From contig WRNH01000005.1 in NCBI GenBank assembly GCA_009776745.1, forward strand, positions 15,566 to 50,550: 34,985 nucleotides of DNA, written 5' to 3'. This DNA comes from Endomicrobiia bacterium. GTDB lineage: Bacteria; Elusimicrobiota; Endomicrobiia; Endomicrobiales; Endomicrobiaceae. A model generated the notes under the pieces. That model was given only the letters and a program-made list of their open reading frames with translations. It was not told the origin of the DNA and did not search any database. Made by a program: the position numbers and the translations under genes. Shown in pieces: positions 3,001 through 17,958 of the stretch (position 1 is the first letter of the stretch; every line of letters begins with the position of its first letter).

Positions 3001-3069
3001 TAAAAATAAAAATGAAAACAGCAGTTTTTTTAATTGTTTTTGGATTGGAAACAGTTTTGTGAAATTCAT
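1..3069 (-). CDS. Pmp-repeat autotransporter / polymorphic outer membrane protein, C-terminus cut off by the window
   Basis: The frame is open from ATG 3069 to the window edge (1023 codons, no stop). AGGAG lies 7 nt upstream of the ATG. A basic, hydrophobic signal peptide covers about residues 1-33 (ending near AVLAVAG). Roughly residues 200-790 carry about ten GGAIY-type motifs (GGAIY, GGAIC, GGAVY) alternating with FxxN motifs (FTNNTA, FTGNTA, FTGNSA, FENNSA). This is the signature of the chlamydial Pmp repeat, which forms a right-handed beta-helix passenger. The rest is Asn/Gly/Ser-rich beta-helix, and the last visible residues (NGLNWYLDYT) resemble the junction that precedes a type V autotransporter barrel. 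The barrel should therefore lie just outside the window. The role is probably surface display or adhesion; the ligand is unknown. It is separated from the helicase upstream by about 230 bp and probably has its own promoter. The family call is strong, the exact function is not known. Confidence 0.88.
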   Translation of the reverse strand, partial: MNFTKLFPIQKQLKKLLFSFLFLPFIAVLAVAGDYNISSFDKLHEVLGMDTDDNRVINISTDITFSGLAYVQVPSSPAVSILIEGDNNIFTLSVPLSSLGFDTNTLEGSTNSKEITIKNLEIKGSNPSSQIRSAIYAYGASYSIGNVFFSLENITIRDSGNSLSGVGGAASFYIASSTVSFAGDVNFNDNEINSGGGGDINGGGGLYVKGAAPTGKAYITSLIGSMLTFDNNKATTSANSSGGGAYFDQYVDADFYGSVNFTNNTANFYGGAIYISNESSFSFWEADFDSNNVSNGNGGAIYLSGSNPSAQRASLTFAGDVNFTGNTAATLGDYGNGGAIYIGNNSFLSFADACNITFTSNTAQDSGGAIYNAGTLNFNNALATTITFSGNDASLGKDIYNTGTININGAGSVIFGGGIEGNGNIYKDGTGKVHFEAGSKTNFEGNFNITGGNVHFSAPAYIKNLSIGSAGTLTLDVDFAGPLTSVLSFDTIATDPNSILYINNVSSTKGETTIFSSTNQIAGTLFGNNNIRDANMGSEEIDYTLKWSEIAGGGIEGILAAFSPWNAFVDSYKNMQTGGTIQLAKNRTATTGDNGFGGPVTGVTNITIDGGGFTLNSAGIQNLGFNLGAISATFTNINFNNFYASSETANGGVFLLNGSTVTYTSLTAFSSNTASRNGGAIYAVSGSEIKFNGNSGFTGNSATRSGGAIYSDGRNNIQFSGTSVFENNSAYAGNGGAICAASGSEISFNGNVDFTGNSATRAAGGTIGATTGNGGAVYINGNSSLTINGSAKFLYNNASSSGAAIFMQGSSPSALAELTIHQINSNATVFEGNKSNGRDESIYLSGNTSLIFDIDKDKEVFLKDGLSSLGSNNTITKTGAGKFILSGSINGNVGLNINIDKGEFSVREGGLLSAGNLNLSNEGTLNLCNSKSDTVNLTNFNSSGTLRMEVIQASSGTSKSNDKIIANSISISEDSILNMYIGIGTYSGEKFVIIESTTTTAITGEFANKSFNANGLNWYLDYT

Positions 3070-3299: not shown

Positions 3300-4568
3300 T
3301 CACACTATCTTTGCCGTTATAATATCGCGTTTTGTCAGCGGGCGCGACAGGCAGATGCCGTCGAAAGACGTGCAGCGGCTTAGCGCGACGTATAACTGTC
3401 CCGGGGCAAAAGCGCCGTACTCCATGTCTATTATTACATTGTCAAAAGTTTTGCCTTGGCTTTTATGTATCGTGACCGCCCACGAAAGTTTCAGCGGATA
3501 CTGTTTAAAAAAACCCGCGCTTTCAGTATCTATCTGCTGAAGATTTTCGTTCCATTTGTATTTAAAAAGTTCCCACTTATAAGGTTCAACCTGTTCGACG
3601 CGTCCGTTTTGAAATTCAACATATATTGCGGTTTTGTCGGAGTACATGTCATTTCTTATGTCTTTTACAATGCCGATGCTTCCGTTGACCCATCTGCCTT
3701 TCGCGTCATTGTTTACCATCATCACCTGCGCGCCTTTTTTTAGCACAAGATTATGCTCCGCGGGAAGCGCGCCGGATTCTTCGTCTATGTTTTCAGATTC
3801 CGCGGTAAAAACCGCATTTTCTTCTCTGATCTTTGAAAGATACGTATAATTTATCTGCGCGGCTTTTTTGTTTGTCGTAGTAAGATAAACCGCCATGGCT
3901 TTATCAATTGCCGCCGCAATGCTGACTTTTTTATTTAAAGCGGCAAGTTCCGCGTCGCCGGCAATTCCGTTTCTTACGGAGTTTAAAAGCGTGACGAAGT
4001 CACCTTCCTGCTGGCGGTATATTTTTTTAAGCTCCACCGTGTGAAGCATGCATTCGTTTAAAGAATATGCGCTGATAAAGTAAGGTGTTTTATATACCGA
4101 ATTAAAAATATGCGTTTCTTCTTTTTTTACTACCGGCGGAAGCTGCTGCAGATCGCCGATAAAAACCATCTGAACGCCGCCGAACGGTTCCCGATGAGCT
4201 TCCCTGTTAAGGCGTAAAAATTTGTCTATGCAGTCCAGAATATCGCAGCGGAGCATTGAAGCCTCGTCGATAATTATCGTTTCGGCTTGTTTGTATATCG
4301 ATTTATCCGAAAGTTTCTTTTTTTTGATTTTGGCAAGAGTCACGTCCGGTTTAAAATTGAAAAAAGAATGGACAGTTTCCCCGCCCGCGTTTAAAGCGGC
4401 AACGCCCGTCGGAGCGAGGATCACGGTTTTTTTATTTAATTTTGAAACGCAGTACTTTAAAAACGTAGTTTTTCCGGTGCCGGCATTACCGGTAACAAAA
4501 ACGCAGTCATTGGTTTTTGAAATAAGCTCAAAAGCCTGCTTAAACTCATTGTTGATTTCTATAGTCAT
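3300..4568 (-). CDS. Pif1/RecD2-like superfamily 1B DNA helicase
   Basis: This is a 422-aa P-loop helicase. Walker A GNAGTGKT is at residues 27-34, followed by a motif Ia-like segment (LAPTGVAAL). Walker B IIIDEAS is at about 98-104, motif III GDLQQLPPV follows, and the C-terminal part has VTIHKSQGKT and YVALSRC (motifs V and VI of SF1B). Such proteins unwind DNA 5'-3' in repair, fork progress or G-quadruplex removal. The length and the lack of added domains fit the small bacterial Pif1-like group. The ATG follows a TAAGGA stretch and sits 31 bp after the stop of the holin-like membrane gene, so the two are probably co-transcribed. There is no sign of a mobile or phage context around it. The helicase assignment is firm; the cellular role is inference. 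Confidence 0.9.
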   Translation of the reverse strand: MTIEINNEFKQAFELISKTNDCVFVTGNAGTGKTTFLKYCVSKLNKKTVILAPTGVAALNAGGETVHSFFNFKPDVTLAKIKKKKLSDKSIYKQAETIIIDEASMLRCDILDCIDKFLRLNREAHREPFGGVQMVFIGDLQQLPPVVKKEETHIFNSVYKTPYFISAYSLNECMLHTVELKKIYRQQEGDFVTLLNSVRNGIAGDAELAALNKKVSIAAAIDKAMAVYLTTTNKKAAQINYTYLSKIREENAVFTAESENIDEESGALPAEHNLVLKKGAQVMMVNNDAKGRWVNGSIGIVKDIRNDMYSDKTAIYVEFQNGRVEQVEPYKWELFKYKWNENLQQIDTESAGFFKQYPLKLSWAVTIHKSQGKTFDNVIIDMEYGAFAPGQLYVALSRCTSFDGICLSRPLTKRDIITAKIV

Positions 4569-4599: not shown

Positions 4600-5535
4600 T
4601 TATTTTAAAGACGTTTTAATTAACCAAGTCTGCGTATCTACTTTCATATAATTTATTCCCATATACGCGTTAAATCCGGAAAATACAATAGCGCCCATGT
4701 AGGCTGTTCCCAAATTTTTTGTATAAAATCCGGCTATAAACTCGGGAATAAAATAAAACAAAAACGCGCATATGCCAAAGCTTAAACACTCTAACAAAAC
4801 CGCCGACAATACGGGATAGCCCGTCTTATTTAAAATAGGCTTTGCCGTGGCGCTTAAACCGGTGATAATAAAAGCCAAAACCGGAAAGGCCGATAAAGCC
4901 GCAAGACTTTTTACATGTATATTAAAGCTCAGCGCCGCGGCAATAATAAGTATTATCAGCGTAAACACATATTTTACCAAAAAGGACGCTGTAAAAGTTT
5001 GAATTTTTTCCAATTCCGAAGATAATGTTTTCTTTTCATATGCAGCTGTCTTAAAATCCCCGTAATCTTCTTCATCCTTTATGTTGTACGGAAGTAAAGA
5101 TAAATCAACGTCTATAAAATTTACGCGGGCAGCAGCGTTTATGCAGCTGAAAAGCAAAGCTCCGTAAAAAGCGATATAAAGATTTTTCACATAGAAACCC
5201 GTTATAAAGCCCGGCGTAAAATAAATTAAAATGCCGCTCCCAATCCAAACAAAAAGAAACAAAATCAATTTTAACAAATCTTTTTTCAGCTTAAATATAT
5301 TTAAAATAATCTTTAACGAAAAAATCAAAATCGTAATAACGCAGGCTAATGCCGGAAAAGCCCGTAAATCGGAAAGATTTTTTATAAAAATAGCCGGCGG
5401 ATTCAAAAATATTACATTGGCGAAAGATATAGCCGTTACCGTCAAAAAAAGCAGCAGCGTATTTATCAGGCATTGCGCTAATAAAGCGGCTGCCGAATTT
5501 GCCGCGCGTTTTAATATTATGCTCAAAAATTCCAT
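4600..5535 (-). CDS. Tandemly duplicated membrane protein resembling the holin-4 (Phage_holin_4_2/YvlD) fold
   Basis: The start is set at ATG 5535 because a GGAGA Shine-Dalgarno precedes it by about 11 nt; an ATG at 5580 would add 15 residues with no such site. The 311-aa product is almost entirely hydrophobic and contains two homologous halves, about residues 32-144 and 190-300. Each half has the pattern AFP-[AV]-LA-x-x-IT (first helix pair), then YF-x-P-x-FI-x-GFY-x-KNL, GA-[LI]-x-FS and a final VD. In each half the order of hydrophobic segments and the P-x-F-x-x-x-F turn recall the four-helix YvlD/Phage_holin_4_2 family, whose function is unknown despite its name. A charged linker (about 150-185, KDEEDYGDFKT) joins the halves. 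It lies 64 bp after the giant glycosyltransferase gene and 31 bp before the helicase. The internal duplication is clear; the fold assignment is tentative. Confidence 0.65.
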   Translation of the reverse strand: MEFLSIILKRAANSAAALLAQCLINTLLLFLTVTAISFANVIFLNPPAIFIKNLSDLRAFPALACVITILIFSLKIILNIFKLKKDLLKLILFLFVWIGSGILIYFTPGFITGFYVKNLYIAFYGALLFSCINAAARVNFIDVDLSLLPYNIKDEEDYGDFKTAAYEKKTLSSELEKIQTFTASFLVKYVFTLIILIIAAALSFNIHVKSLAALSAFPVLAFIITGLSATAKPILNKTGYPVLSAVLLECLSFGICAFLFYFIPEFIAGFYTKNLGTAYMGAIVFSGFNAYMGINYMKVDTQTWLIKTSLK

Positions 5536-5599
5536 TTTTATTTCTCTCCTGCGTCCAAAACAAAGAAACCCGAAAATCAACAGGGTGTGCGGACAAATC

Positions 5600-8500
5600 C
5601 TAAGCCGCCTGTAAGAGCGCGTTGACGAAATTCGGATTTGAAGTTCCCGTAAAAGCGTTTATGTCCGGAATTTGCGCGTCAGGCATAAGAGCGGGCGGAA
5701 TATTTTCCGGATCTGCGGAAATAACGACCGCGCGGTCTGAGTTAAACATTTCGTCGAAATCTATGCGCGTCAAATTTATTTGTCCGGCAAGATTTGTCCT
5801 GCCTGCCGCTTTTGCAAAAGATTCCATATCAAAAACTATATTTCCGATATTGATTTCCAGAGCTTCGTTTATGCGATTGTTCAAATCGCCGGGTCCCGCA
5901 TTTTCGAAATTCATATCGAAAAAGCCGTCTTCAAACAAAGAAAATCCGCGATTTCTTATTTCCGAGACAAATGATTCGTCGTTTGAAAGCGCTGGATCTG
6001 CGCGCACGAACACCTGCATTTGTTTAATGCCGGCCAGAACATCAAGCGATTCTAAAATTTGCTCTTTGCTTGATCCCGCGTAATTTATGACCAGATTTTT
6101 TATGTTTTTATTTTCGGCCAAAGCCGCTATAAACGCTTCTCTGCCGGGTTTGAAATCCGCGCTTACGCTGACTCCCGTGTATCTGTTTTTCAGCCGTTTG
6201 GCCAGCCTTTCTATTTGCGCGGAGGTTATTTTATCGTTTTCAACGGATAAAAATATTTCATCGTAAACAGATTTTTTCAACAGGCGTTTGATTTGCTTCG
6301 TATCTCTGATCCTGAATTTCGCAATGACGTTTTTGTTTTTATTTTGCGCTAAAGCGGCGGCATAAGCCTGCGGTTCATAAATGCCGTCCTGATGATCGTA
6401 TAAAACCATCGAATCGCCAAAACTTATGTCCGAAAAATTTACCCCGTCCAAAATATTGTTTTGAGAATACAATTTTTTTACGGCAGCAGCGCTTTTCTTG
6501 TCCGCAGACAGGAAAGGCGAACCGCATAAAAGAAGTTTTATATTTTTCAGCGCTTCTTTGAGAGCTTCGTCTTTTTGCTTTTCAGTCAAATTTTCATTTG
6601 AAGATTTGACAAAAAAGCGCATTACTCCGTTTTCAAAAGCCGCGCTTATGCTGAATTCCGCGTCTATCCCGGCGACTCCGTATTTTGTTAAAAACTTTCC
6701 TTCTTTAGAATTATTTATTGCGATCACGGCATTGTTAAATCCTTGTTTCTGCAGCTTTAAAGCCGTTTCAGGCGTAAAATCGCCGTCTTGAGAAAGCCAA
6801 TAAATCGTTTTTCTCGCAGAATTTCCATAATAAGCGATATTATCGCGGAATTTTTTTGAAATTGGAGTTACTCTTAAAGAAGAATTAAAATAAACGGGAG
6901 CAAGCATAGTCAGAATGACATTAAGCGAACCTAAGCCGGCAAGAATTATAAAAACCGTAAGCGGAAAAGAAAAATATAAGGCTGCCGACAGTACCGAAGC
7001 CATGCCGGAAAAGTATATGAACCCCGCTCTGTATTGCACTTTCAATTCTTTTTTTACGTTTATTTTAACCTCAGCTTTAACGGTACCGTTTTCTCCGGTT
7101 ATTTTTTCTCTGCCGATTTGCGTAGCTCCGAAAGTCTGTCTTACTCCGCGCAATCTGTTTATTGTGCCGATTATCGAATTATGCATAACGCCCACGTTTA
7201 AAACGGCTTTTTCAATAAGCACGGGGAAAAGAGCCTTCCAGACGCTCTTGTCCGTGCCTCTGTTTTTTTTAATAATATCGGCTACGGCCGGAATATTGAC
7301 GGCAAGCATCGTAAACAGCATCAACGGAATAAAATCAAGCTTGAAAAACGCCGAGAACAAAGGAAACGGCGATAAAAGCGCGGCAAACACAAAAAGCGTT
7401 ATAATTAACGGATATAAAAACAATATAAAACCCATAGTCACATTCATTTTTGAAAAGAAACCTAAATGCTTTAAAGACAGGACTCCTTTATATAAAGGAG
7501 TGAACACTCCTTTTTTAAACCATTCTTTTACGGGATTAAGCCATAATTCCGCGGTCCCGTATCCGAATTTGGACATTTGCCTGATAGCCTCCAGCGGTTC
7601 TTCAGGCATGCCCTCCCCAAACAGCATCGTAGATTCAAGATAAATGTTCAGCATAATGTTTAAAGCTTTCAAAGGGTCTGTATTTTGCGCTTTTACGGTT
7701 TTGAGCAATTCGTTAAATTCTTTTTTCGCATAACCGAATACCGAAAGTTTTTCAATTATTTCGTCGTAAGTAAAATCTGTTTCCTGCAAAGCGATATTAT
7801 TTTCCCCTGCGTATGACAGAAGCTGTCCGATATTGAGCAAGGCAAGCTCTTCGAAGGTTATATGTTCGTATTGTATTTGCTTTCCGCGGTAGTTTTGTCC
7901 GGTGGTTTCTTCCCGCATCGTGATCATCTTCATAATCATAGCGAAATCTTCGGCCACATTGTCCTCAGACCACAGCCCCGATTTTTCAAGAGCCGTTTTT
8001 CTTATAAATCCGTTATGTCCTAAAAATTTTACGAATCCGTTTCTTGCGTCATAAGGAACGATGTATTCCCAAAGAAGAGATCCTTCATGAGCGCGCAGCT
8101 CGCTGGTTTTAGTGTTATTAGGATTATTTACGACAGTTTGATTTTGGGTGTATCCTAAAGCCGGATCAATTACAAATTCCGTCATTGATGCGACTATTCC
8201 GTTTGCAGGAACGGTCGAATCTTTATCTAAAAGCAAAATGACGTCACCCGCGGCAACGTCGCCCGACACATATGTATTTTCAAATATAGGCTTGTCATTT
8301 ACAAGCTGCTCTTTTAAGCTTTTTAACGCGTCTTCTTGCGTCATTCCTTCTTTTACAAGTTCTTCCAGTATTTTACTTATCATTAAAGAATGGTTTAAGT
8401 TGCTGGCTTTTTTAAACAACCCTCTTCTCTCAAACTCGCCCCATGAAGTTTTTGTTTTATGCTTCGGCCTTGCTATAAAGCCTATATCGTGTTCTCTGTA

Positions 8501-10783
8501 AAAAGAAACTCTGTCGTAAATCTGGCTTTCATCTTCGGTCAAAGGCAGATTATTTTGTTTTTTCAGTTCTATGGCGGCTAAAGCCGCGTCGATATCATTA
8601 TCCGCAAAAATCATTAATCCGTCGTCGCTTACTACGATATTGGCGTATTGCCCTCCGGCTTTTTTGTTATACCGGTCTCTTGCGTCAATAGCATATTCGA
8701 GAGTACGTTTAATTACCGGCCAAGGTTCGTTGTACACCGGTATTGAAGTGGTTTGTCTTAAATACTGCGCGCCTTCCGGCATTTCTTTAATGTGGGCGGC
8801 GTAATTTTGGGATTCGGGGGCAGGTGTAGAATCTTTAAAAATATAAACTGAAAGCACCAAAGCGTATATAGCCGGCAAGATCAACAATACCATAACCGGA
8901 GCTAATAGAAGCATGCCCAGAGTTACATTGTATATGTTTGAAAACAGCAAAAACGCCGCAAAAACCAATGTCGTTTTAAAAATATCTCTGGTATAATTGG
9001 GTCCGCTGAAAACAGGCAGCAGATTTTTTAATTTTTGTAAAAACGTTTTATTTTCGATTTCTCCGTTTTGAAGATTTATTTTACGGATTTTTCCGTCAAC
9101 ATACGTAAATATCAATTTGAAATTTTCCGAAGTTTCGAATTTTACTTCCAAACTTTTTAAAATCGGAATTTGTTCGGCGATCTCTTTAAGCTTGCCGTTA
9201 TATTGGCCGGGATAATCTTTCATAAGATCTCTGACGTTTTCCGCCGCAGACAGAATAATATTTTGTTTTTCCTTCTCGGGCAGAACGGACGAAGGCATTA
9301 AAGCGTAAGCATTGTTTAAAATTCCGGATTGCTTTTTAACATTGTGATCATAAACGGTCTGATCGTCTTTGCTTAAATTTACGTTCGGCGTTACGGTTAT
9401 AAAATTGACGCCGGAATCTTTAAATATCTCTTTCAATCCTTCCGTGTGAAACCCGCCGGATACAAGAACAATGTTTTTATAACCTTTCTCTTTTGCGCCG
9501 TTTAAAATTTTTTGCGCAAAAACGGAATTCCTTAAAACGTTGTTTGAAATAAACTTATCGAACAGATCGAAGTTATCAATAAAAAATTCCGGAATATCGC
9601 CGCCGCCGTAACGCGAATAAAGCGCGGCAAACGTTTTAAAGTTTTCCTTAAAATACGTATAGTCGTCAAAAGTTATGCTGTTATTAAAGAAATTATTAAA
9701 ATAAGAAGAAAAATCCTTAATGAAAGCCAGATCCTGCTTTACGACATTGTCGGAGGCGGACATTCTTAAAGCGCCGGTAAGATTGATTTCTTCGCTTCTA
9801 AGTTCAAAAACGTCTATAGATTTCAGGTTTTTCAAGCATGTGAGATAAGAAAAAAACTCATTATACTTCTGCGAAAGATCATACTTTTCCAAATATTCCA
9901 AATTTTTTTCAGAGCTGTCATCCGATTCAATATAAGCTTTATACTCTTTATACGACAAAAAATTTTTTATTGAATTATGGAACTCGGCATACTGTTTTTC
10001 GATTTTCCGTTTAGAAATTTTATCCATTTTTTGCGAATACGCGATAAAGGACTCTATATTCGGAAAAGGCCGTTCGGAATAATATCCCGCAATATTTAAA
10101 AAACTCCTCCCTCGGCGAAATTTATCGTACATCTTCATCAAGGCGGAATAATATTTTATCTGCGAAATTTTGCCTTCGTCATTGTCTTTTATTAAAGAGT
10201 CAAGTTTTTTTCCGTTTACAAACGATGCGGCGGTTTTATTGATATTTTCGTTAAAATTTTTCAATTGGCGCGAAGTTTCGTCTTTATGGCCGGTTATCCG
10301 GTCTAATAACAAAAAATTTTCAAAATAAACGCTTTCGTCTTCTATCCCGCAGATCCGCCCTCCGAAATCTTTTGCTGCCGCGTAATATTCGTATCCGGTC
10401 AGCTGCGAACTTGAAATAAGATAATCCAATACGTCTTGCTTAAGGCTGTCGCCGCCGATATCGCGTATCCAGCCGATATCCACTTCGCCTGCCGCGCCTT
10501 CGGCGTAAATCGCGTCTATTCCGATCTGTTTTTCTATGTTTTCAAGTATGGAAGATATATTTTTTTGAGCGGAAACATTGTAATGCAGATCTTGTACGCT
10601 TATAACCGAGATCTGATTATCCTCAAAAACGCTTGCGTCAGATATGAAACCGGCGGCTTTCGGGATTTGAAAATACGTTTCCCGCGCCGCAGCGGAAGAA
10701 GAGGCTGCATACGAGAGATCGCCGCAGACAAAAGATACAAATATTGAAAAACATAGAGTTGCGCATATATATTTTTTTATCAT
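5600..10783 (-). CDS. Giant exported/membrane fusion protein: TIKI/EreA/ChaN-like domain + GT2 glycosyltransferase
   Basis: The product is 1727 aa from ATG 10783, chosen because a signal peptide (MIKKYICATLCFSIFVSFVCG) starts there; the upstream ATG 10831 has no better ribosome site. Residues 60-520 form a domain with VQDLH (about 63-67), YAEGA and SGGFH (about 442-446), motifs expected of the TIKI/TraB/EreA/ChaN hydrolase superfamily. Two hydrophobic helices lie at about 600-650. A GT2 domain follows at about 677-960: IPVYNEP (about 680), SDDG (about 719), DKDS (about 852) and AEDFAM (about 944). No QxxRW motif was found after it, although processive synthases normally have one. Further membrane segments lie at about 1115-1175 and 1250-1305, and the last about 420 residues are an unrecognised alpha/beta region. 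It sits 61 bp after the 2127-aa giant, with which it shares the N-terminal domain and a similar C-terminal tail. The likely role is synthesis of an envelope glycan; the substrate is unknown. Confidence 0.8.
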   Translation of the reverse strand: MIKKYICATLCFSIFVSFVCGDLSYAASSSAAARETYFQIPKAAGFISDASVFEDNQISVISVQDLHYNVSAQKNISSILENIEKQIGIDAIYAEGAAGEVDIGWIRDIGGDSLKQDVLDYLISSSQLTGYEYYAAAKDFGGRICGIEDESVYFENFLLLDRITGHKDETSRQLKNFNENINKTAASFVNGKKLDSLIKDNDEGKISQIKYYSALMKMYDKFRRGRSFLNIAGYYSERPFPNIESFIAYSQKMDKISKRKIEKQYAEFHNSIKNFLSYKEYKAYIESDDSSEKNLEYLEKYDLSQKYNEFFSYLTCLKNLKSIDVFELRSEEINLTGALRMSASDNVVKQDLAFIKDFSSYFNNFFNNSITFDDYTYFKENFKTFAALYSRYGGGDIPEFFIDNFDLFDKFISNNVLRNSVFAQKILNGAKEKGYKNIVLVSGGFHTEGLKEIFKDSGVNFITVTPNVNLSKDDQTVYDHNVKKQSGILNNAYALMPSSVLPEKEKQNIILSAAENVRDLMKDYPGQYNGKLKEIAEQIPILKSLEVKFETSENFKLIFTYVDGKIRKINLQNGEIENKTFLQKLKNLLPVFSGPNYTRDIFKTTLVFAAFLLFSNIYNVTLGMLLLAPVMVLLILPAIYALVLSVYIFKDSTPAPESQNYAAHIKEMPEGAQYLRQTTSIPVYNEPWPVIKRTLEYAIDARDRYNKKAGGQYANIVVSDDGLMIFADNDIDAALAAIELKKQNNLPLTEDESQIYDRVSFYREHDIGFIARPKHKTKTSWGEFERRGLFKKASNLNHSLMISKILEELVKEGMTQEDALKSLKEQLVNDKPIFENTYVSGDVAAGDVILLLDKDSTVPANGIVASMTEFVIDPALGYTQNQTVVNNPNNTKTSELRAHEGSLLWEYIVPYDARNGFVKFLGHNGFIRKTALEKSGLWSEDNVAEDFAMIMKMITMREETTGQNYRGKQIQYEHITFEELALLNIGQLLSYAGENNIALQETDFTYDEIIEKLSVFGYAKKEFNELLKTVKAQNTDPLKALNIMLNIYLESTMLFGEGMPEEPLEAIRQMSKFGYGTAELWLNPVKEWFKKGVFTPLYKGVLSLKHLGFFSKMNVTMGFILFLYPLIITLFVFAALLSPFPLFSAFFKLDFIPLMLFTMLAVNIPAVADIIKKNRGTDKSVWKALFPVLIEKAVLNVGVMHNSIIGTINRLRGVRQTFGATQIGREKITGENGTVKAEVKINVKKELKVQYRAGFIYFSGMASVLSAALYFSFPLTVFIILAGLGSLNVILTMLAPVYFNSSLRVTPISKKFRDNIAYYGNSARKTIYWLSQDGDFTPETALKLQKQGFNNAVIAINNSKEGKFLTKYGVAGIDAEFSISAAFENGVMRFFVKSSNENLTEKQKDEALKEALKNIKLLLCGSPFLSADKKSAAAVKKLYSQNNILDGVNFSDISFGDSMVLYDHQDGIYEPQAYAAALAQNKNKNVIAKFRIRDTKQIKRLLKKSVYDEIFLSVENDKITSAQIERLAKRLKNRYTGVSVSADFKPGREAFIAALAENKNIKNLVINYAGSSKEQILESLDVLAGIKQMQVFVRADPALSNDESFVSEIRNRGFSLFEDGFFDMNFENAGPGDLNNRINEALEINIGNIVFDMESFAKAAGRTNLAGQINLTRIDFDEMFNSDRAVVISADPENIPPALMPDAQIPDINAFTGTSNPNFVNALLQAA

Positions 10784-10818
10784 ATTTATTTTGACCGTAC
10801 TGCTTCGTCCGTTTGCTG

Positions 10819-10839
10819 TGCGGAGAGTCATTCTCCGCA
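10819..10839. repeat. Perfect 8-bp stem-loop between the two giant genes
   Basis: TGCGGAGA-GTCAT-TCTCCGCA lies 5 bp after the stop codon of the 2127-aa giant and 35 bp before the start of the 1727-aa giant. No T-run follows on the minus strand, so transcription probably reads through. It could be an mRNA processing or stability element that uncouples expression of the two genes. Confidence 0.55.
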
Positions 10840-10844
10840 GCTTT

Positions 10845-13800
10845 TTACGCCGCTTTCAATATTGCGTTCACAGCTTCCAAATTAGGTCTCTTCTTAAAGT
10901 CGTCTTTATTGATCTTCACTTCGCTTTCGTAAGCAAAAATCATTTCAATCATAAGATCCGCAACAGCCGGCACGGCTCTGGGATTGGCGTTAACTGTGGC
11001 GGCTATTTCATTGCGGTAATTCGATTTATTGATCTCGTTGACTCTGTCCGTAACCAGTTTAACTTCGGCTTCGCCGGCCGCTTCATAAGCCATATATTTG
11101 GATGAAGCAAGCTTGCCTATAAGTATTTCCGCGTTTCTGTCTTTGAATCCTTTTTTTCTTTCCTGCTTTTTAAATTCAAGCGCGGCGGCAAATTTTTCAA
11201 GCAGTCCTTCAATGTAAGCTTGTTTTATTTTAATTATTTCCGCTTCAATATCAACATCAAGCTCGTCTTTAAACTCATCTCTGACTTTTTGTTCTATCGC
11301 CGTTAAATATTCGCTCATAAAATTTTTACCGGAAACAAATTGGGAAAGAATGTATTCGGCCGGCTCTCCGTCCGATAATAATTTGTACGCATTTTCAAGA
11401 AGCGAAGGGCTTATAGACAAAGCCGGAATATTCATATTTTCCACCGTGTAATTTCTCGCCGTTTCTCTCGCGCTGTCGGCGGTTATCGGCGCGGATTCAA
11501 AATATTTAAGGATTTTTATTGAAAGCAGATCTTCAAGAATTTTTCCTAGGCCGGCGTCGTTTTCGGCATATTCTTCCAAGGCCGACGCGTAAAGGACAAT
11601 ATCCTGTTTGGCATTCGCAAGAGAAGATTCGAGATTTTCGGCATTTTTCACTATATCGGTATCAAAAGTTTCTATGCCTCTGTTTACTGACGAAACCGTT
11701 TCGATTTTTCCGTTAACGGGGTCAAAAAGCCCGTCGAAAAGATTAAGCAGCTCCCCTGAAATCTTTGCTTTTTCCGTTTTTTCAACCATTACGCTTATTC
11801 CGTCTCTTCTGAACTGTTCCAAAAGCAAAGGAAGAGCAAGATTTCCTTCGGCGCCAAGAGAAAGCGCAAGCTCTTCGGTAAAAATAATATTTCCGTTGCT
11901 GGCATTTGAAAAGATTTTCATATATCTTTCCAAACCTTCCGCATCCGTGATACGGTCAAGAAATATTCTGACGCTTTTTGCCCGCTGCCAGCCTTCGGCA
12001 TTTCTGTTAATGCGGTGATCTCTGTAATCTCCCGCCGAAAAAGGCCTTGTGTATACCTCGTCGCCGGCATAGACTCTTAAATTTTTTGAAACGGAAAAAC
12101 CGGATTGTTTCTTTTCCGATACCGTATCAACTTCAATGATATCCGCCGTCATTTTATCGCTCAGATAAACCCCGTCTTCTCTAAGAGCGCCGGTAATAAG
12201 CTTTTCAAACTGTTTATTCTGTACCGCAGCGGCAATATCTTCATAAAAAGCGTCTTCGGCATAATATACAATTCCGTATTCCTGCGAATTTTTAAGAACA
12301 TAAACGGGTTCTTCGGTAAATACTATATCCGAAGGTTTATATTCCGAAAGCCTTGAAGAAGGTATTTTCTCTCCGGTAGTTTTTAGTCTGGCCGTTCTTG
12401 CCTTGATTCCCGAGTTTGAAAAATTATTGATATCAAATCCGAATAAATTATTTGTAATGAACACGTTTTTTGAAACCAGACCGCTGTTGTCTACCGTCGC
12501 TTTGCCGCCAAGATGTTTTGCGTGGATTATGTGCGGAACATACATTATATTTACCTGCACATTGCTGTTTACGGCAGCGTCGGGATTATTTAAGTTCCAT
12601 CTGAAATGGTTAGTTATATACACATAGAGATTCCCGATTACGGTAATGCCTATGTAAGCAATGGCAAGATATGCCGCGCATTGTCCCAACATAATCAAAT
12701 ATCCTGCGGTAAACCCGCTTAAAAGAAAACTCATCACGGTGATCAAAGCAACGAAAGCCGCAATAATTGCCAGTCCTTTGTAAATAGTTTCGTTGAAATA
12801 TAAGGCTTTGCGCTTCATTTCTTTGGCCGCGGCAAGCCTTTGCTCCGTTACCGAAGCAGGAGACAATCCGTGCATTCTTGTAAACTTTTCAGGCGATACA
12901 AACATTATTATGGGAGCTTCGAAGACGGATACTATTCCCGCTCTGAGTTTCGGGTATTTCTCTTTTGTTATTCCAAGCCGGTTTAAAAAGCGCGCGACAA
13001 ACGGAAGTTCAAGCCCTGCCGCGCGAATAGTTACTTCTTTGACCGTAATATTCGCGTTTTGCGTATTAAGTTTGCTTCCGCCAAAATCTTCTCCGACGCT
13101 GACAACTACTTCCAGGTCTTTCTTTGCGTCAAGCCCCGCAAAAAGCCTCTGCGGAATTACGATAGTGGTTTTGCCGCCCGCGTCGGCAATCTTATATTTT
13201 TCGGGAAGAAGTATATTGGAGGAGGCTATCGGAGCGCCGTTATCGTCGAGATTTCTCATTTCAATTCTCGCAAAAGAACCCGGAGCCGCGCTGATCGTTT
13301 CAATATCAAAAGCTATTTCGCCGTCTTTTTCAATATTTTCGGTTTTGATGCTGAACCAATACGCATTCCAGTTAGCCCCTCCTTCGTTTTGAAGATTATC
13401 AATTCTCATTGTCATTTCACGCGCCTGCTGCTGTACCTCTGTCGGCTGTACCTCCGCCTGCTGCGGCGCGGCCGGCTGCTCCTCTTCTGCCGGCTTAGGA
13501 AGCTGAACATTTTCAGGTAAACTGCTATAGTTCGTAAAAATCAGAAAAGGATGCACGACAGTTTCTCCGCCTAAATTTACGGTAATATTAATAAATATTG
13601 CCCAAGAGCTTGAAGCAAGACTCGGCAGAGGAGTCACTTGCCAGCTAAAAGCCGTAATAACTCTGCCGGTATTTACATAGTTCACTATTCCGCTGATGTC
13701 CTGGCTTGACCTTATATAAGCGTAAATACTGTCAACCGCGCCTTTAAGTTCCGCGTCGTCCGTATACAGAAGCGCTTCTTTTGCGGCTGCCAGCCAGCCG

Positions 13801-16800
13801 AGCGTCCATTCAAAACTTACGTATTGCGCTCTTTCGGTAAAATCCAAACCTATGTAGCTGCCGTTTTCTTTTACGCCGGCTAATCCAAGAGTCCTTTTTA
13901 AAATTTCAACGCTTGCATTTTTTATTCCGAATCTTGCTTCCATCTGCGCGTTAAAATCTTTCACGCCGAATACGGAAATAATCCAAGTTTGGCAGTCCGT
14001 GGCAAAAATGTTGTTTATGACATTAGTTTGTAAATTAACTCCGCTTAAAAAATATCCTTTTTCTTTGTCATACATTGAAAATAAAAAATTCGCCAATTTC
14101 GGCAAAGCTTTTTCTATTTCGCCTTTTAGTTCTTTGTCATCGGTAAAATTCTTTAAATTATCTAAAAATGAGTATGTCGAAACGATATTCTCAACGGAAA
14201 CGGTTTGATAATAATTGTCTCCCATATATTCATAATTTGAAATATTATCTCTGGGAGCCATTCTTATAGCTCCTGCCCACTGTCCGGATTCAACCTGCAA
14301 AGCAAGCATGGCTTTTGCCAATTCAACAGCCCTTTGATGCGCTCTGCTGCCCAGATCCGAACCTTTATATGCTTGCGACATGCTTACAAAAACATTCCCG
14401 ATCCATGCATTTTCGCCTGTGATCGGCTGGGACTGATTCTCAAGCCAGGCGCCCTGCGTGCTTAATATTTTCCAATAATATCCCTGCCCCTCGGGAATAT
14501 TGGTATCGTCGTATGTAAAATCCGCATTAGTGGTATTTGAATTTTTATTTACCTCTAAAGCATTAAACATTTTTTCTATCAAATCTCTGTTTTCTTCAGG
14601 ATACAAAAGCAAAGCTTTCATAAGAACCGCCATATCGTAAATGACTACGCCTTCTTCTACAATTTTTCTTTGATCCGCATCCTGTATAATGCTTGTATTT
14701 CCGATAAAACTTCTTGGCAAAGGTTTGCCTTCCATAAAATCTTGTGCAATTTGTCTTATATAACTGTTTGTCCGAACATCTGCGTATTCTTCCGTCTGCG
14801 TTATGCCCGGGGTTTCCGGAGGAACATAAGGCGTAGGGGTACCGCTTGACTCTGCGCTGCATGCGGAAAACATTATCATCAAGAGAGCGATCATGAGCAT
14901 GCTTTTTATCTTTTCCAATACGCTTCTCACGGCGCGCGGAGTTTTTTTGTCCGCCTCAGCTTTTTCAATTTGTTTTGCAAGCGCGGCTCTCTGGAAAAAT
15001 TCCGGCATTCTTGAAAAAAGTTCGTAAGAAATCCCGTCGATCAAAAGCGCCGCTTTAGTTTCTTCAAGAGTTGAACCTCTTTTTACCGTCGCTTTCGCAT
15101 ATTCTTCCGCCGCGGGAATAGCGCCGTCAACGCCCATGTCTGTGCCGTCGAAAGCTTTTTTCAGAAAAAAAGCTTTTGCCATTTCGTAAACCGGTTCGTT
15201 TTCAATATCGAGAACGGCCACGCCGTAAATATTTTTTAAAGCTTCCGGAACAAGAGTTTTCGCCATATCAAAATAAGCTTCAAGCAAAGATTTTTCTGAA
15301 ATTTTGATTTCGCCGGCAGTAACCGTTTCCGCGGCGCGCGACGCTTCGGCATCTACGGTTATTTCATTATTTGCGCCTCTTGAAACTGAGATCCTGGCTC
15401 CGTTGCTAAAGATTATTTCCGCGGCGTTATTGTCCGTTCTGTCTACCGTAAGAACGCCTTCGGCGCCGGTAATGTTATTAATTTCGTTGACCAATCCGTC
15501 AAGATCGTCAAAACTTATTTCTTTGCCCAAAAATGCCGCGCCTGCTTCCACAATACTTTTAAAACGTCCGGCATCAGCGGTTTGGGACGCGATCACAAAG
15601 GAGAGCGCTTCTCTGTAGATCCTGCTTTGTTCTATTATTGTCTGTCTGTAATTTATTTCCGCCATTCCGGCGCTTTCCGAAATTTTCGGAGTGATCGTTA
15701 TGTGGCTGATTTTTTTATCGGAGAGTATGCCGTTTATTCCGGCCGTATGGTATCCGCCGGTAACAATGACGATAATTTCTCTGGCGCTTTTCATAATATC
15801 TTCCGGAGAAATTTTTTTCGGCGCGATATCTTCATAAATTTCTTTTTGCGGCGCCTCATACTTGCCGCTGCCGCCGGAAATAAGCCGTTCATTTTCGTCT
15901 ATTTTACGTACAAAAATTTCATTTCTTTTATTGTTAACGCCGTAATAATCGTTTAAAAAAGCAAACTGCCCGCTGATTTCATTTATATGATTGACCGACG
16001 CGTATTTGGCGTACAGATTTATGAAATCGTTAAAGTTTCTTTTAAAATATTCTTCGTCTTTGGCCGTAAGTTTATTGGTAAGCCAGCCTTCAAACACGGG
16101 ATAAAAACGGCTTAAAAAAGAAATTTCTCTTTCCGTATCGTCCGCCGCGAGCGATCTTCTTATCTGCTCTTCAAGTTTTTGTTCCTGGGCGAATAACTCT
16201 AACGGATTTATCCGCGAATTAAGACTTTTCAGCTCCAAAAACGCTTTAAGTTCGGAATAACCTTTTTCGCCGGTCCCGTGTTCCGAAATATATTTGCAGA
16301 GCATGTCTATATCGCGCAGATTGTCAGTGGCTTCAAGCATCTTATGATATTGCGATATCGGCATGTTCTCTCTGATCGACGCCAAATATTTTTGAAGCTG
16401 CGAATTAATATGCTTGGCGTTCAATTTTTTTGACATATTGTCAATAGCAACGACTTTTTTCAGTTCGGTAAATTCTTCGGGGCCGATATTGAAAGCGTTA
16501 TAGTAATTTTGCGGAGCCGCGTTTATTTTTTCGGCGTAATCGAAAAGTGTTTTGTAATATTTGGCTGCCTCTATTTTATTGCCGCGGTAATCCGCGGAGG
16601 ATTTGGAAAATTTTTTCATTTCCGGACTGAGAATTTTATTCGCAAGATAACCGATCTCATTTTTTACGTTTGCCGCTATGCCGAGGTTTTTAGCTTCATT
16701 CTCATAAATATTTCCGAGCCTTACGATATTTTGATAATGAATTTTCGCGTCTTCCAAACCGAACAGATTGTCCTTATCATTTAAAAAAGCGAAATATTCC

Positions 16801-17228
16801 GCTCCCGTAAGAGCTCCGTTTTCAACCATTTGCGAAACAATTTCATTTTTCTGTCCTGAGTTGATGCCGGAAGAAAGCCATGAAACGTCTACTTTTCCGC
16901 TTGCGCCTTCCGAATAAACGCGTTTAATCGTATACTTTTCGTCGAGCGACTGCAGGATTGAAGCGATATTTCTTTGCGTCTGAGGATGCGCGTGCAGATC
17001 TTGGATGCTGACGATAACCTGCGGCGAATTATAGTCCGCCATTTCCGTTATTTTCCCGAAGCGTTCGGCGATAATGTCGGACTTTATTTCGTGAATCGGC
17101 GCATTATTTTTTTCCAGCATTACCGCCGCGCCGGAATTTTGTCCGAAACTTTGCGCAAAACTTTGTCCGGCAAAAGCCGTCAAAAAACATAATGCCGTTA
17201 AAACTGCCGTAAATTTTTTAAAAATCAT
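10845..17228 (-). CDS. Giant exported fusion protein: TIKI/EreA/ChaN-like domain + alpha/alpha-toroid (glycosidase-like) domain + membrane segment
   Basis: The product is 2127 aa from ATG 17228, which has AAGGAG 6 nt upstream and begins a clean signal peptide (MIFKKF...AFAGQSFAQ). Residues 60-560 repeat the first domain of the neighbouring giant: IQDLH (about 74-78), YSEGASG and TGGYH (about 490-494). Near residues 775-790 there is a lipoprotein-type hydrophobic stretch ending FSAC-SAESS (Cys about 790), inside the chain. Residues 810-1230 are helical with Trp/Tyr-rich motifs (QGYYWKILSTQGAW, DCQTWI, FEWTLGW) typical of six-hairpin alpha/alpha-toroid glycosidases. A Pro/Gln/Glu linker follows (about 1243-1270), then a beta-rich, carbohydrate-binding-like segment (about 1277-1400), two membrane helices (about 1480-1540) and a long, partly helical C-terminus. 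The likely role is glycan processing at the envelope, partnered with the glycosyltransferase encoded next. Catalytic residues could not be assigned. Confidence 0.75.
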   Translation of the reverse strand: MIFKKFTAVLTALCFLTAFAGQSFAQSFGQNSGAAVMLEKNNAPIHEIKSDIIAERFGKITEMADYNSPQVIVSIQDLHAHPQTQRNIASILQSLDEKYTIKRVYSEGASGKVDVSWLSSGINSGQKNEIVSQMVENGALTGAEYFAFLNDKDNLFGLEDAKIHYQNIVRLGNIYENEAKNLGIAANVKNEIGYLANKILSPEMKKFSKSSADYRGNKIEAAKYYKTLFDYAEKINAAPQNYYNAFNIGPEEFTELKKVVAIDNMSKKLNAKHINSQLQKYLASIRENMPISQYHKMLEATDNLRDIDMLCKYISEHGTGEKGYSELKAFLELKSLNSRINPLELFAQEQKLEEQIRRSLAADDTEREISFLSRFYPVFEGWLTNKLTAKDEEYFKRNFNDFINLYAKYASVNHINEISGQFAFLNDYYGVNNKRNEIFVRKIDENERLISGGSGKYEAPQKEIYEDIAPKKISPEDIMKSAREIIVIVTGGYHTAGINGILSDKKISHITITPKISESAGMAEINYRQTIIEQSRIYREALSFVIASQTADAGRFKSIVEAGAAFLGKEISFDDLDGLVNEINNITGAEGVLTVDRTDNNAAEIIFSNGARISVSRGANNEITVDAEASRAAETVTAGEIKISEKSLLEAYFDMAKTLVPEALKNIYGVAVLDIENEPVYEMAKAFFLKKAFDGTDMGVDGAIPAAEEYAKATVKRGSTLEETKAALLIDGISYELFSRMPEFFQRAALAKQIEKAEADKKTPRAVRSVLEKIKSMLMIALLMIMFSACSAESSGTPTPYVPPETPGITQTEEYADVRTNSYIRQIAQDFMEGKPLPRSFIGNTSIIQDADQRKIVEEGVVIYDMAVLMKALLLYPEENRDLIEKMFNALEVNKNSNTTNADFTYDDTNIPEGQGYYWKILSTQGAWLENQSQPITGENAWIGNVFVSMSQAYKGSDLGSRAHQRAVELAKAMLALQVESGQWAGAIRMAPRDNISNYEYMGDNYYQTVSVENIVSTYSFLDNLKNFTDDKELKGEIEKALPKLANFLFSMYDKEKGYFLSGVNLQTNVINNIFATDCQTWIISVFGVKDFNAQMEARFGIKNASVEILKRTLGLAGVKENGSYIGLDFTERAQYVSFEWTLGWLAAAKEALLYTDDAELKGAVDSIYAYIRSSQDISGIVNYVNTGRVITAFSWQVTPLPSLASSSWAIFINITVNLGGETVVHPFLIFTNYSSLPENVQLPKPAEEEQPAAPQQAEVQPTEVQQQAREMTMRIDNLQNEGGANWNAYWFSIKTENIEKDGEIAFDIETISAAPGSFARIEMRNLDDNGAPIASSNILLPEKYKIADAGGKTTIVIPQRLFAGLDAKKDLEVVVSVGEDFGGSKLNTQNANITVKEVTIRAAGLELPFVARFLNRLGITKEKYPKLRAGIVSVFEAPIIMFVSPEKFTRMHGLSPASVTEQRLAAAKEMKRKALYFNETIYKGLAIIAAFVALITVMSFLLSGFTAGYLIMLGQCAAYLAIAYIGITVIGNLYVYITNHFRWNLNNPDAAVNSNVQVNIMYVPHIIHAKHLGGKATVDNSGLVSKNVFITNNLFGFDINNFSNSGIKARTARLKTTGEKIPSSRLSEYKPSDIVFTEEPVYVLKNSQEYGIVYYAEDAFYEDIAAAVQNKQFEKLITGALREDGVYLSDKMTADIIEVDTVSEKKQSGFSVSKNLRVYAGDEVYTRPFSAGDYRDHRINRNAEGWQRAKSVRIFLDRITDAEGLERYMKIFSNASNGNIIFTEELALSLGAEGNLALPLLLEQFRRDGISVMVEKTEKAKISGELLNLFDGLFDPVNGKIETVSSVNRGIETFDTDIVKNAENLESSLANAKQDIVLYASALEEYAENDAGLGKILEDLLSIKILKYFESAPITADSARETARNYTVENMNIPALSISPSLLENAYKLLSDGEPAEYILSQFVSGKNFMSEYLTAIEQKVRDEFKDELDVDIEAEIIKIKQAYIEGLLEKFAAALEFKKQERKKGFKDRNAEILIGKLASSKYMAYEAAGEAEVKLVTDRVNEINKSNYRNEIAATVNANPRAVPAVADLMIEMIFAYESEVKINKDDFKKRPNLEAVNAILKAA

Positions 17229-17472: not shown

Positions 17473-17958
17473 TTATGACCCTATTTGTTTTGTAAAAGAA
17501 TGATCTCCGCTAAAAAGACGCAATAAGCCTATATACCGCAGCATAAACCCTAAAATCAAAATGAAAAAGAACGCGTTTGCGGCGTTTGAAGCCACAGCAT
17601 TCCGAATACCCGCAAAACTGCCCGTAGTGAAAATGTTTTTTCTGGAAAATTGCTGGGAAACAAATGCGGCGGTAAAGTTTTTATCATGCGCGGCTTTTTG
17701 TAAGCTTAGCCGGCCTTTTCCGAAATCCAAAGAGATCGCAAGAGACATCACGTCATTAACAAAATTTTTGCATACATCGGTTATGACTTGGCTGTAATCG
17801 CGCGCCAAACGTATATCGTTGCCGATACAGTTTGTTTCTTTCGCCGAAATATTATTTAATATTATGCCCGAAAACGTTTTTATATCGGCAGAGGCAACAG
17901 TCGACCCCGATAAAATAAGCATAAAAACAAACAATAATGAAACCGATTTTTTAAGCAT
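17473..17958 (-). CDS. Small secreted or membrane-anchored protein of unknown function
   Basis: The product is 161 aa. It has an N-terminal signal peptide (basic MLKK, hydrophobic core LLFVFMLILSGS, likely cleavage after ASA at about residue 24) and one strongly hydrophobic helix near the C-terminus (about 127-147, AFFFILILGFMLRYIGLL) followed by a short polar tail. The middle has two cysteines (CIGND and VCKNF) and no recognisable family motif. The start has no clear Shine-Dalgarno; a TATAAT at 17977-17982 would give a very short leader. The gene is closed by a strong terminator and is thus a separate transcript upstream of, and in the same direction as, the giant operon. I do not recognise the family; the gene itself is supported by signal peptide, promoter-like sequence and terminator. 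Confidence 0.7.
   Translation of the reverse strand: MLKKSVSLLFVFMLILSGSTVASADIKTFSGIILNNISAKETNCIGNDIRLARDYSQVITDVCKNFVNDVMSLAISLDFGKGRLSLQKAAHDKNFTAAFVSQQFSRKNIFTTGSFAGIRNAVASNAANAFFFILILGFMLRYIGLLRLFSGDHSFTKQIGS

What the first reader, a model, noticed from the sequence alone, without database searches (positions are those of the whole stretch)
5600..17228. Paired giant exported proteins joining a TIKI/EreA/ChaN-like domain to a glycosyltransferase and to a glycosidase-like toroid
Seen: two adjacent genes of 2127 and 1727 codons begin with the same domain (QDLH... about 380-415 residues later GG[FY]H) after a signal peptide, then diverge into an alpha/alpha-toroid module in one and a membrane-embedded GT2 module in the other. 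Known: cyclic beta-glucan synthases also combine glycosyltransferase and alpha/alpha-barrel parts in one giant chain, but not with this N-terminal domain. Inference: the pair makes and trims an envelope glycan, with the shared N-domain as a common anchor or metal-dependent hydrolase. I know of no described system of this layout.
Basis: partly seen in the sequence, partly recalled or inferred. Interest (0 to 1): 0.85.

Follow-up and report, generated by a model that had tools for sequence, protein, structure and literature searches.

The report
Exported giant proteins with enzyme cargo
The two huge neighbouring genes are not a dedicated glycan-making pair but two of about 18 giant exported proteins in one Endomicrobia genome (phylum Elusimicrobiota), all starting with the same enzyme-like domain and nearly all ending in the same short tag, with interchangeable enzymes in between that even include glycolytic ones; I found no description of such a family.

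Summary
The genes exist exactly as described: window 10845-17228(-), 2127 aa, and 5600-10783(-), 1727 aa. Their shared head has a confident fold (pLDDT 93) and the catalytic spacing of the TIKI/erythromycin-esterase superfamily (D-x-H, Glu 28 residues later, distal His). The toroid ((alpha/alpha)6 barrel) and GT2 module are real.

The 'pair' is not. In two same-genus genomes the first gene keeps its neighbours without the second, which lies elsewhere in one genome and was not found in the other.

The genome has about 18 genes with this head, on chains up to >6,000 aa (7% of the genome). Endomicrobiales relatives have up to ~25; other Elusimicrobiota have 18-74 divergent copies. The middles are interchangeable: adenylate kinase, PFK, PGI, PGK, PGM, PPDK, phosphatases, glycosidases, glycosyltransferase. 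All 12 complete family members in this genome end in [I/L/M]LxAA-COOH or a close variant; 0 of 83 other ORFs do once three giant fragments are set aside. Tails hold 1.2 Cys per 1000 residues against 9.4 in neighbours, which fits export. Some members have a small membrane-protein gene immediately upstream.

I read this as an exported mosaic-protein system: hydrolase head, enzyme cargo, C-terminal recognition tag. Its biological purpose is inferred, not shown.

The parts
10845..17228 (-). giant 1 (P0001, 2127 aa from ATG 17228)
   Evidence: RBS-like AAAGGAG before the ATG; orthologs with 45-50% identity over the full length in G003/G004
17154..17228 (-). Sec signal peptide of giant 1 (MIFKKFTAVLTALCFLTAFAGQSFA)
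   Evidence: sequence; equivalent segment in nearly all family heads
15624..17078 (-). TIKI/Ere-like head domain of giant 1 (D-x-H at 16992-17000, Glu57 at 16908-16910, GGYH His at 15747-15749)
   Evidence: AF2 pLDDT 92.7; 13 invariant residues in 85 sequences; H to E spacing of 28 in 84 of 85
14859..14909 (-). internal lipoprotein-like signal (SMLMIALLMIMFSAC) before the cargo
   Evidence: hydrophobic peak 1.94; Cys kept at the equivalent place in all orthologs inspected except L062
13428..14855 (-). (alpha/alpha)6 toroid, AGE-epimerase/GH76/GH8-like; candidate acids E962, D1101, E1163 (stop-to-stop numbering)
   Evidence: circularly permuted copy in L060; slot holds a TIM-barrel glycosidase in L059
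12978..13427 (-). segment that looks like a beta-sandwich carbohydrate-binding module (inference from sequence)
   Evidence: conserved next to either glycosidase type; fold not tested
12609..12776 (-). hydrophobic hairpin
   Evidence: similar hairpins between modules of other giants
10848..12260 (-). C-terminal helical-looking domain shared with the C-termini of several other giants
10848..10862 (-). C-terminal tag ILKAA-COOH
5600..10783 (-). giant 2 (P0002, 1727 aa from ATG 10783; an earlier ATG at 10831 is possible)
   Evidence: 60-61% identical full-length orthologs in G003 and G005
9323..10669 (-). TIKI/Ere-like head domain of giant 2
7310..8743 (-). GT2 glycosyltransferase module with SDDG, DKD and AEDF motifs
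   Evidence: Pfam PF13632 E=4.7e-12; 75% identical across three genomes
8744..8971 (-). transmembrane segments before the GT2 module
6818..7432 (-). two hydrophobic stretches after the GT2 catalytic part
5603..5617 (-). C-terminal tag LLQAA-COOH
17473..17958 (-). small companion gene P0006 (signal peptide + C-terminal TM, YIGLLRLF)
   Evidence: 21 family members found, all 21 immediately upstream of head-bearing giants
4600..5580 (-). PF04020-type membrane protein following giant 2; similar genes follow it in G005

Best explanation
Both genes belong to a family of exported giant mosaic proteins found so far only in Elusimicrobiota. Shown by sequence: a Sec signal peptide, a common TIKI/Ere-superfamily head with a conserved catalytic constellation, a long swappable cargo of enzyme modules often separated by hydrophobic hairpins, and (in Endomicrobiales) a C-terminal [ILM]LxAA tag. 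Inferred: the chain is exported by Sec, the head is an active hydrolase (most likely a protease or esterase that processes the chain or its targets), the tag is read by an envelope factor (a PDZ-type C-terminal protease such as CtpA, or a secretion receptor), and the cargo works outside the cytoplasm. In giant 1 the cargo is a glycosidase-type unit; in giant 2 it is a membrane-embedded GT2. Their adjacency is a lineage-specific insertion, not a pathway.
For: About 18 heads in the window's genome; 35 of 60 relatives carry them, up to ~25 per genome, almost all within the order; 18-74 divergent copies per genome in ten other Elusimicrobiota. Head: AF2 92.7; H to E spacing 28 in 84 of 85, equal to EreC H50-E78 (PMC7979712), RRSP H3902-E3930 and BcR135 H85-E113 (PMC6254334); Foldseek rank 1 EreC, rank 34 BcR135 (2rad). 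Cargo swap: toroid replaced by a TIM-barrel GH in an ortholog with a 66% identical head. Captured metabolic enzymes. C-tag 12/12 complete family members against 0/83 other ORFs in own-genome loci after removing three giant fragments, 20/26 in relatives, plus 7/7 complete giants fetched later. Export: signal peptides, Cys 1.24 against 9.4 per 1000, p=6e-9. Embedded PGKs form one clade, keep the PGK motifs in 5 of 6 and have no Cys in 5 of 6. Companion gene 21/21 upstream.
Against: No expression or localisation data. ATP-dependent enzymes and a nucleotide-sugar GT2 outside the cytoplasm lack an obvious substrate supply. Foldseek to EreC is not significant on its own (E=0.19), and the first acid is Asp, not Glu. 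S41/CtpA occurs once in nearly every giant-bearing genome but also in G014, which has none, so it is not a specific partner. Low Cys could have another cause. The internal lipobox conflicts with a simple topology.
Confidence: 0.6

Rival explanations
1. Secreted multi-effector proteins, used like MARTX or polymorphic toxins: the TIKI head and the cargo enzymes act in or on a neighbouring cell (protist host, prey or competitor), with hydrophobic hairpins helping membrane passage.
For: TIKI domains occur as effectors in giant toxins (RRSP, PMC6254334); hairpins between modules; phosphatase, kinase-like, adenosine deaminase and SecA-like cargos; ATP-dependent enzymes would find substrate in a foreign cytosol; giant genes in this part of the tree have been read as surface weapons (PMC12057145).
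Against: The head is N-terminal and constant, not a variable effector; the C-terminus is a constant tag, not a toxin; no toxin-type family was recognised by Pfam; copies are few or absent in the small genomes of g8, the genus to which the flagellate endosymbionts probably belong, although those have the closest hosts.
Confidence: 0.25
2. Exported polyproteins: the chain is cut into separate enzymes after export, by the head itself or by signal peptidases at internal signals.
For: An internal lipoprotein-like signal with a Cys kept in most orthologs of a Cys-poor chain; whole-enzyme cargos; a protease-class head.
Against: No conserved cleavage site identified; the orientation of the internal signal after an exported head is unexplained.
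Confidence: 0.25
3. One reading: the two genes are a dedicated envelope-glycan synthase/trimming pair.
For: Adjacent on one strand; one GT2, one glycosidase-type module.
Against: Not neighbours in other genomes; G004 has P0001 but no P0002 hit; conserved synteny of P0001 lacks P0002.
Confidence: 0.05
4. Membrane-tethered metabolic assemblies or decaying fusions without an exported function.
For: Glycolytic set (PGM, PGI, PFK, PGK, ADK) repeatedly combined; one embedded PGK is degraded (L211).
Against: Cys depletion and signal peptides; open frames of up to ~11,800 aa without stops in relatives; embedded PGK clade kept across several genera.
Confidence: 0.1

Closest known systems
TIKI/Ere superfamily hydrolases (EreC, BcR135, RRSP, Tiki, ChaN)
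   Same: D/E-x-H, Glu 28 residues after the His, distal His at the end of a core strand; beta core with a helical insertion
   Different: About 280-residue helical insertion, Asp for the first Glu, fused N-terminally to giant exported chains
Giant ORFs of Omnitrophota and other PVC-related lineages including Elusimicrobia (PMC10066038, PMC12057145)
   Same: Very long exported or membrane chains with few annotated domains, in related phyla
   Different: Those reports describe adhesion, TMH and carbohydrate domains; the common head, C-terminal tag and captured metabolic enzymes are not mentioned in the passages read
MARTX toxins
   Same: Giant secreted multidomain proteins that can hold a TIKI endopeptidase
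   Different: Here: Sec signal peptide, head N-terminal and universal, short C-terminal tag, metabolic cargo; RTX repeats not noticed but not searched for
AGE epimerases / GH76 / GH8 (alpha/alpha)6 barrels
   Same: Fold of P0001 815-1290
   Different: 10-14% identity, no Pfam match, circularly permuted relative in L060
Cyclic beta-glucan synthases
   Same: One giant chain with GT2-type and barrel modules (from general knowledge)
   Different: Here the two modules lie in separate, non-co-inherited genes with a TIKI head
ssrA-type C-terminal degrons
   Same: End in -A-A-COOH; this genome's tmRNA frame ends ...MPIAA
   Different: Conserved Leu is at -4, not -3; tag is genomically encoded on one family

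Membership tests
TIKI/Ere superfamily | [D/E]-x-H ... Glu 28 residues on ... distal His | tested here: met
   83 of 85 heads show a single EG at +28 from the His, one more shows 23 and 28, in one the motif search failed; D27, H29, E57, H444 invariant; first acid is Asp, not Glu
TIKI/Ere superfamily | Core fold similar to solved members | tested here: inconclusive
   AF2 92.7; Foldseek best hit EreC 6xcs but E=0.19, probability 0.38
TIKI/Ere superfamily | Profile match to Pfam ChaN/TraB/Ere families | tested here: not met
   one member at E=0.12 to ChaN only; none among the listed families
TIKI/Ere superfamily | Hydrolytic activity | not testable with these tools
   needs biochemistry
(alpha/alpha)6 glycosidase/epimerase toroids | Fold | tested here: met
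   Foldseek E=2e-6, probability 1.0; model pLDDT only 66.5
(alpha/alpha)6 glycosidase/epimerase toroids | Family-level sequence signature and catalytic pair | tested here: inconclusive
   no Pfam match; conserved acids seen but not assigned
GT2 | Pfam GT2 profile and D,DxD,ED motifs | tested here: met
Cyclic beta-glucan synthase | GT and barrel in one chain | tested here: not met
   separate genes, separable in other genomes
MARTX | RTX repeats, C-terminal T1SS signal, cysteine protease domain | not tested
   no such domain among Pfam hits of the tails, but no targeted search
Polymorphic toxins | Constant N-terminus with a variable C-terminal toxin and a downstream immunity gene | tested here: not met
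   C-terminus is the constant tag; companion gene is upstream; downstream genes not surveyed
ssrA/ClpX degron | Aliphatic residue at -3, AA at the end | tested here: not met
   -3 is mostly S/A/T/K, Leu at -4; the -3 rule is from general knowledge

The most novel reading that the evidence does not exclude
Elusimicrobiota have a dedicated pathway for exporting giant mosaic proteins, marked by a TIKI-hydrolase head and a C-terminal LxAA tag, through which the cell displays or delivers captured, catalytically intact copies of its own central-metabolism enzymes (PGM, PGI, PFK, PGK, adenylate kinase, PPDK) outside its cytoplasm.
Probability: 0.4. Interest if true: 0.95.

Novelty: categorically new. 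Interest (0 to 1): 0.85.

Why it matters
It links giant genes with few annotated domains, known to be common in this part of the bacterial tree, to testable handles: a shared enzyme-like head, a five-residue C-terminal tag and a companion gene. It suggests a new export or processing route and raises the question of what intact glycolytic enzymes do outside the cytoplasm. In Endomicrobiaceae copy number rises with genome size (Spearman 0.72, 36 genomes), so the system may have been lost as flagellate endosymbionts shrank. The Endomicrobia comparative-genomics paper I could read (PMC11257099) has no occurrence of 'giant', 'large protein' or 'secretion system'.

Tried and rejected
HMMER of P0001, P0002 and the head profile against PDB sequences: nothing useful. 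Pfam and NCBIfam for the head: nothing. 'Functional pair': rejected by synteny. S41/CtpA as an exclusive partner: not discriminating. Spread by plasmids or phages: no hit for the head. Tag as a plain ssrA mimic: the Leu position differs, and ARAGORN's tmRNA tag call looks wrong. First alignment was too divergent for a collection scan, so a six-sequence subset was used. A PDB search for part of P0002 failed on my coordinates and was not repeated. I searched the head profile only within the phylum; the collection scan outside it was pattern-based.
Full report
Observation. Both giant genes are present as described. Giant 1 runs 17228..10845 on the minus strand (2127 aa), giant 2 10783..5600 (1727 aa). 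Each begins with a signal peptide and then the same domain; phmmer with giant 1's head finds giant 2's at E=3e-41.

Not two but many. A search of the window's own genome (2.29 Mb, 130 contigs) found the head in about 18 separate ORFs with open frames of 959 to 6,076 aa, plus fragments. Listed ORFs add up to about 56,000 residues, 7% of the genome, a minimum because many are cut at contig ends. Named relatives are Endomicrobium, Endomicrobiellum, Ruminimicrobiellum and other Elusimicrobiota from termite gut, rumen and other environmental samples. Among 60 anonymous relatives 35 carry the head: 17-25 matches in the genus, 0-24 elsewhere in the family, 5-20 in other families of the order, 0-2 elsewhere in the class. 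In a phylum sample 64 of 295 were positive; ten distant positives hold 18-74 divergent copies on chains up to 12,444 aa. No hit in plasmids or phages.

Head. 85 heads align with 13 invariant residues, among them D27, H29, E57, E94, N117, N382, R385, G441, G442 and H444. AlphaFold2 gives pLDDT 92.7. The His-Glu spacing is 28 residues in 84 of 85. EreC has H50/E78/H289 with E47 (PMC7979712); RRSP has E3900/H3902/E3930/H4030 and BcR135 H85/E113 (PMC6254334): the same 28. Foldseek's best PDB hit is EreC, with BcR135 at rank 34, but E=0.19 is not significant, probably because of the large helical insertion. I treat superfamily membership as likely, and activity as inferred.

Cargo. Pfam scans of the tails in the window's genome show two adenylate kinases + PFK + PGI (L013), PGK + PGI (L015), PPDK parts (L012), adenosine deaminase (L014), metallophosphatase + LMW phosphatase (L009), LMW phosphatase (L022), SecA-DEAD (L019), VWA (L021) and GT2 (P0002). 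Relatives add PGM/PMM, UDPGP, starch synthase, HD, M48 peptidase, AAA, ABC1/APH and others. L209 carries ADK + two PGM/PMM sets + PGK + PGI; L210 NUDIX + PGM + PGI + PGK; L208 PGK + PGI + ADK + methyltransferase. Most genomes of the order also keep ordinary stand-alone PGK and PGI genes. Embedded PGKs form one clade among 12 Endomicrobiales PGKs (support 0.974, unrooted, no outgroup), pointing to an old capture; five of six keep the catalytic motifs.

Export. Giant tails have 1.24 Cys per 1000 residues against 9.4 in 60 other ORFs of the same loci (p=6e-9); embedded PGKs have none in five of six, stand-alone ones 1-2. Eleven giants from other Elusimicrobiota show 2.4 against 7.2. With the signal peptides this argues for an extracytoplasmic location, though it does not prove it.

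C-terminal tag. All 12 complete family members in the window's genome loci (11 with the full head, one cut at its N-terminus) end in a pattern best written [ILM]LxAA; in relatives' loci 20 of 26 match the search pattern, and among the rest are near variants, a probable frameshift and a short truncated ORF. Seven further complete Endomicrobiales giants all match. Other ORFs of at least 200 aa match in 7 of 462 cases; all seven are cut at or lie near a contig or locus end, or continue a frameshifted giant, and look like giant fragments (my reading). The domain before the tag varies. Members from other Elusimicrobiota do not share it; five of the eight complete ones end in -QA.

Companion. A small protein like P0006 (signal peptide, C-terminal TM, 'YIGLLRLF') was found 21 times in fetched loci, always immediately upstream of a head-bearing giant, including three glycolytic giants. 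The fetched loci are centred on giants, so the absence elsewhere is weak, but the position is consistent.

The window's two members. Giant 1: head, linker, internal lipoprotein-like signal, (alpha/alpha)6 toroid, a segment resembling a carbohydrate-binding module, hydrophobic hairpin, shared C-terminal domain. In L059 (head 66% identical) the toroid is replaced by a TIM-barrel glycosidase (E=1e-5 to a reconstructed ancestral glycosidase) between the same flanks, and in L060 the toroid is circularly permuted. This supports a glycan-active slot. Giant 2: head, TM segments, GT2, TM segments, C-terminal region; the GT2 is its best-conserved part (75% across genomes).

Not a pair. In G003 and G004 the order small gene - giant 1 - PIF1 helicase - PMP-like protein is kept without giant 2. 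Giant 2 lies on another contig in G003 and G005, followed in G005 by relatives of the same membrane gene; G004 has no giant 2 hit. The simplest reading is insertion of giant 2 plus its follower between giant 1 and the helicase.

Interpretation. I favour an exported mosaic-protein family with a hydrolase head and a C-terminal recognition tag. Export is well supported, head activity likely, tag recognition plausible, and the use of the cargo (own envelope, environment or another cell) open. The effector and polyprotein readings remain live.

Noticed in passing
window 1-3069 (-): Polymorphic-membrane-protein (Chlam_PMP repeat) protein, running off the window; a relative follows PIF1 in G003 and G004 as well.
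   Followed up: partly
window 3300-4568 (-): PIF1-like helicase conserved downstream of giant 1 in G003/G004 (79-87% identity).
   Followed up: partly
L013:6832-7539 and L015:3-617: Two glycolytic giants of the same genome end at contig ends in an identical PGI-derived stretch, suggesting recent duplication or gene conversion that broke the assembly.
   Followed up: no
L092:14335-14344: A giant is split by a frame change with a 10-base overlap; the second part carries the ILxAA tag. Sequencing error or real frameshift not decided.
   Followed up: no
L180:1501-1901: tmRNA whose frame ends ...NINPMPMMGFGFMPIAA*; ARAGORN reported a different tag peptide.
   Followed up: partly
L218-L227: Giants of other Elusimicrobiota share a 'W.ER(R)'-like motif soon after the signal peptide, and several end in -QA.
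   Followed up: no
L009 3246-3330 and 3704-3790 (aa); L010 1525 (aa); L011 1358 (aa): Recurrent hydrophobic hairpin module ending in H..[ID]DY.Y in several giants.
   Followed up: no
G014 (one 1.6 Mb contig) and G026: High-completeness genomes of the family without the head, although genus mates of G014 have 14-21 matches.
   Followed up: no
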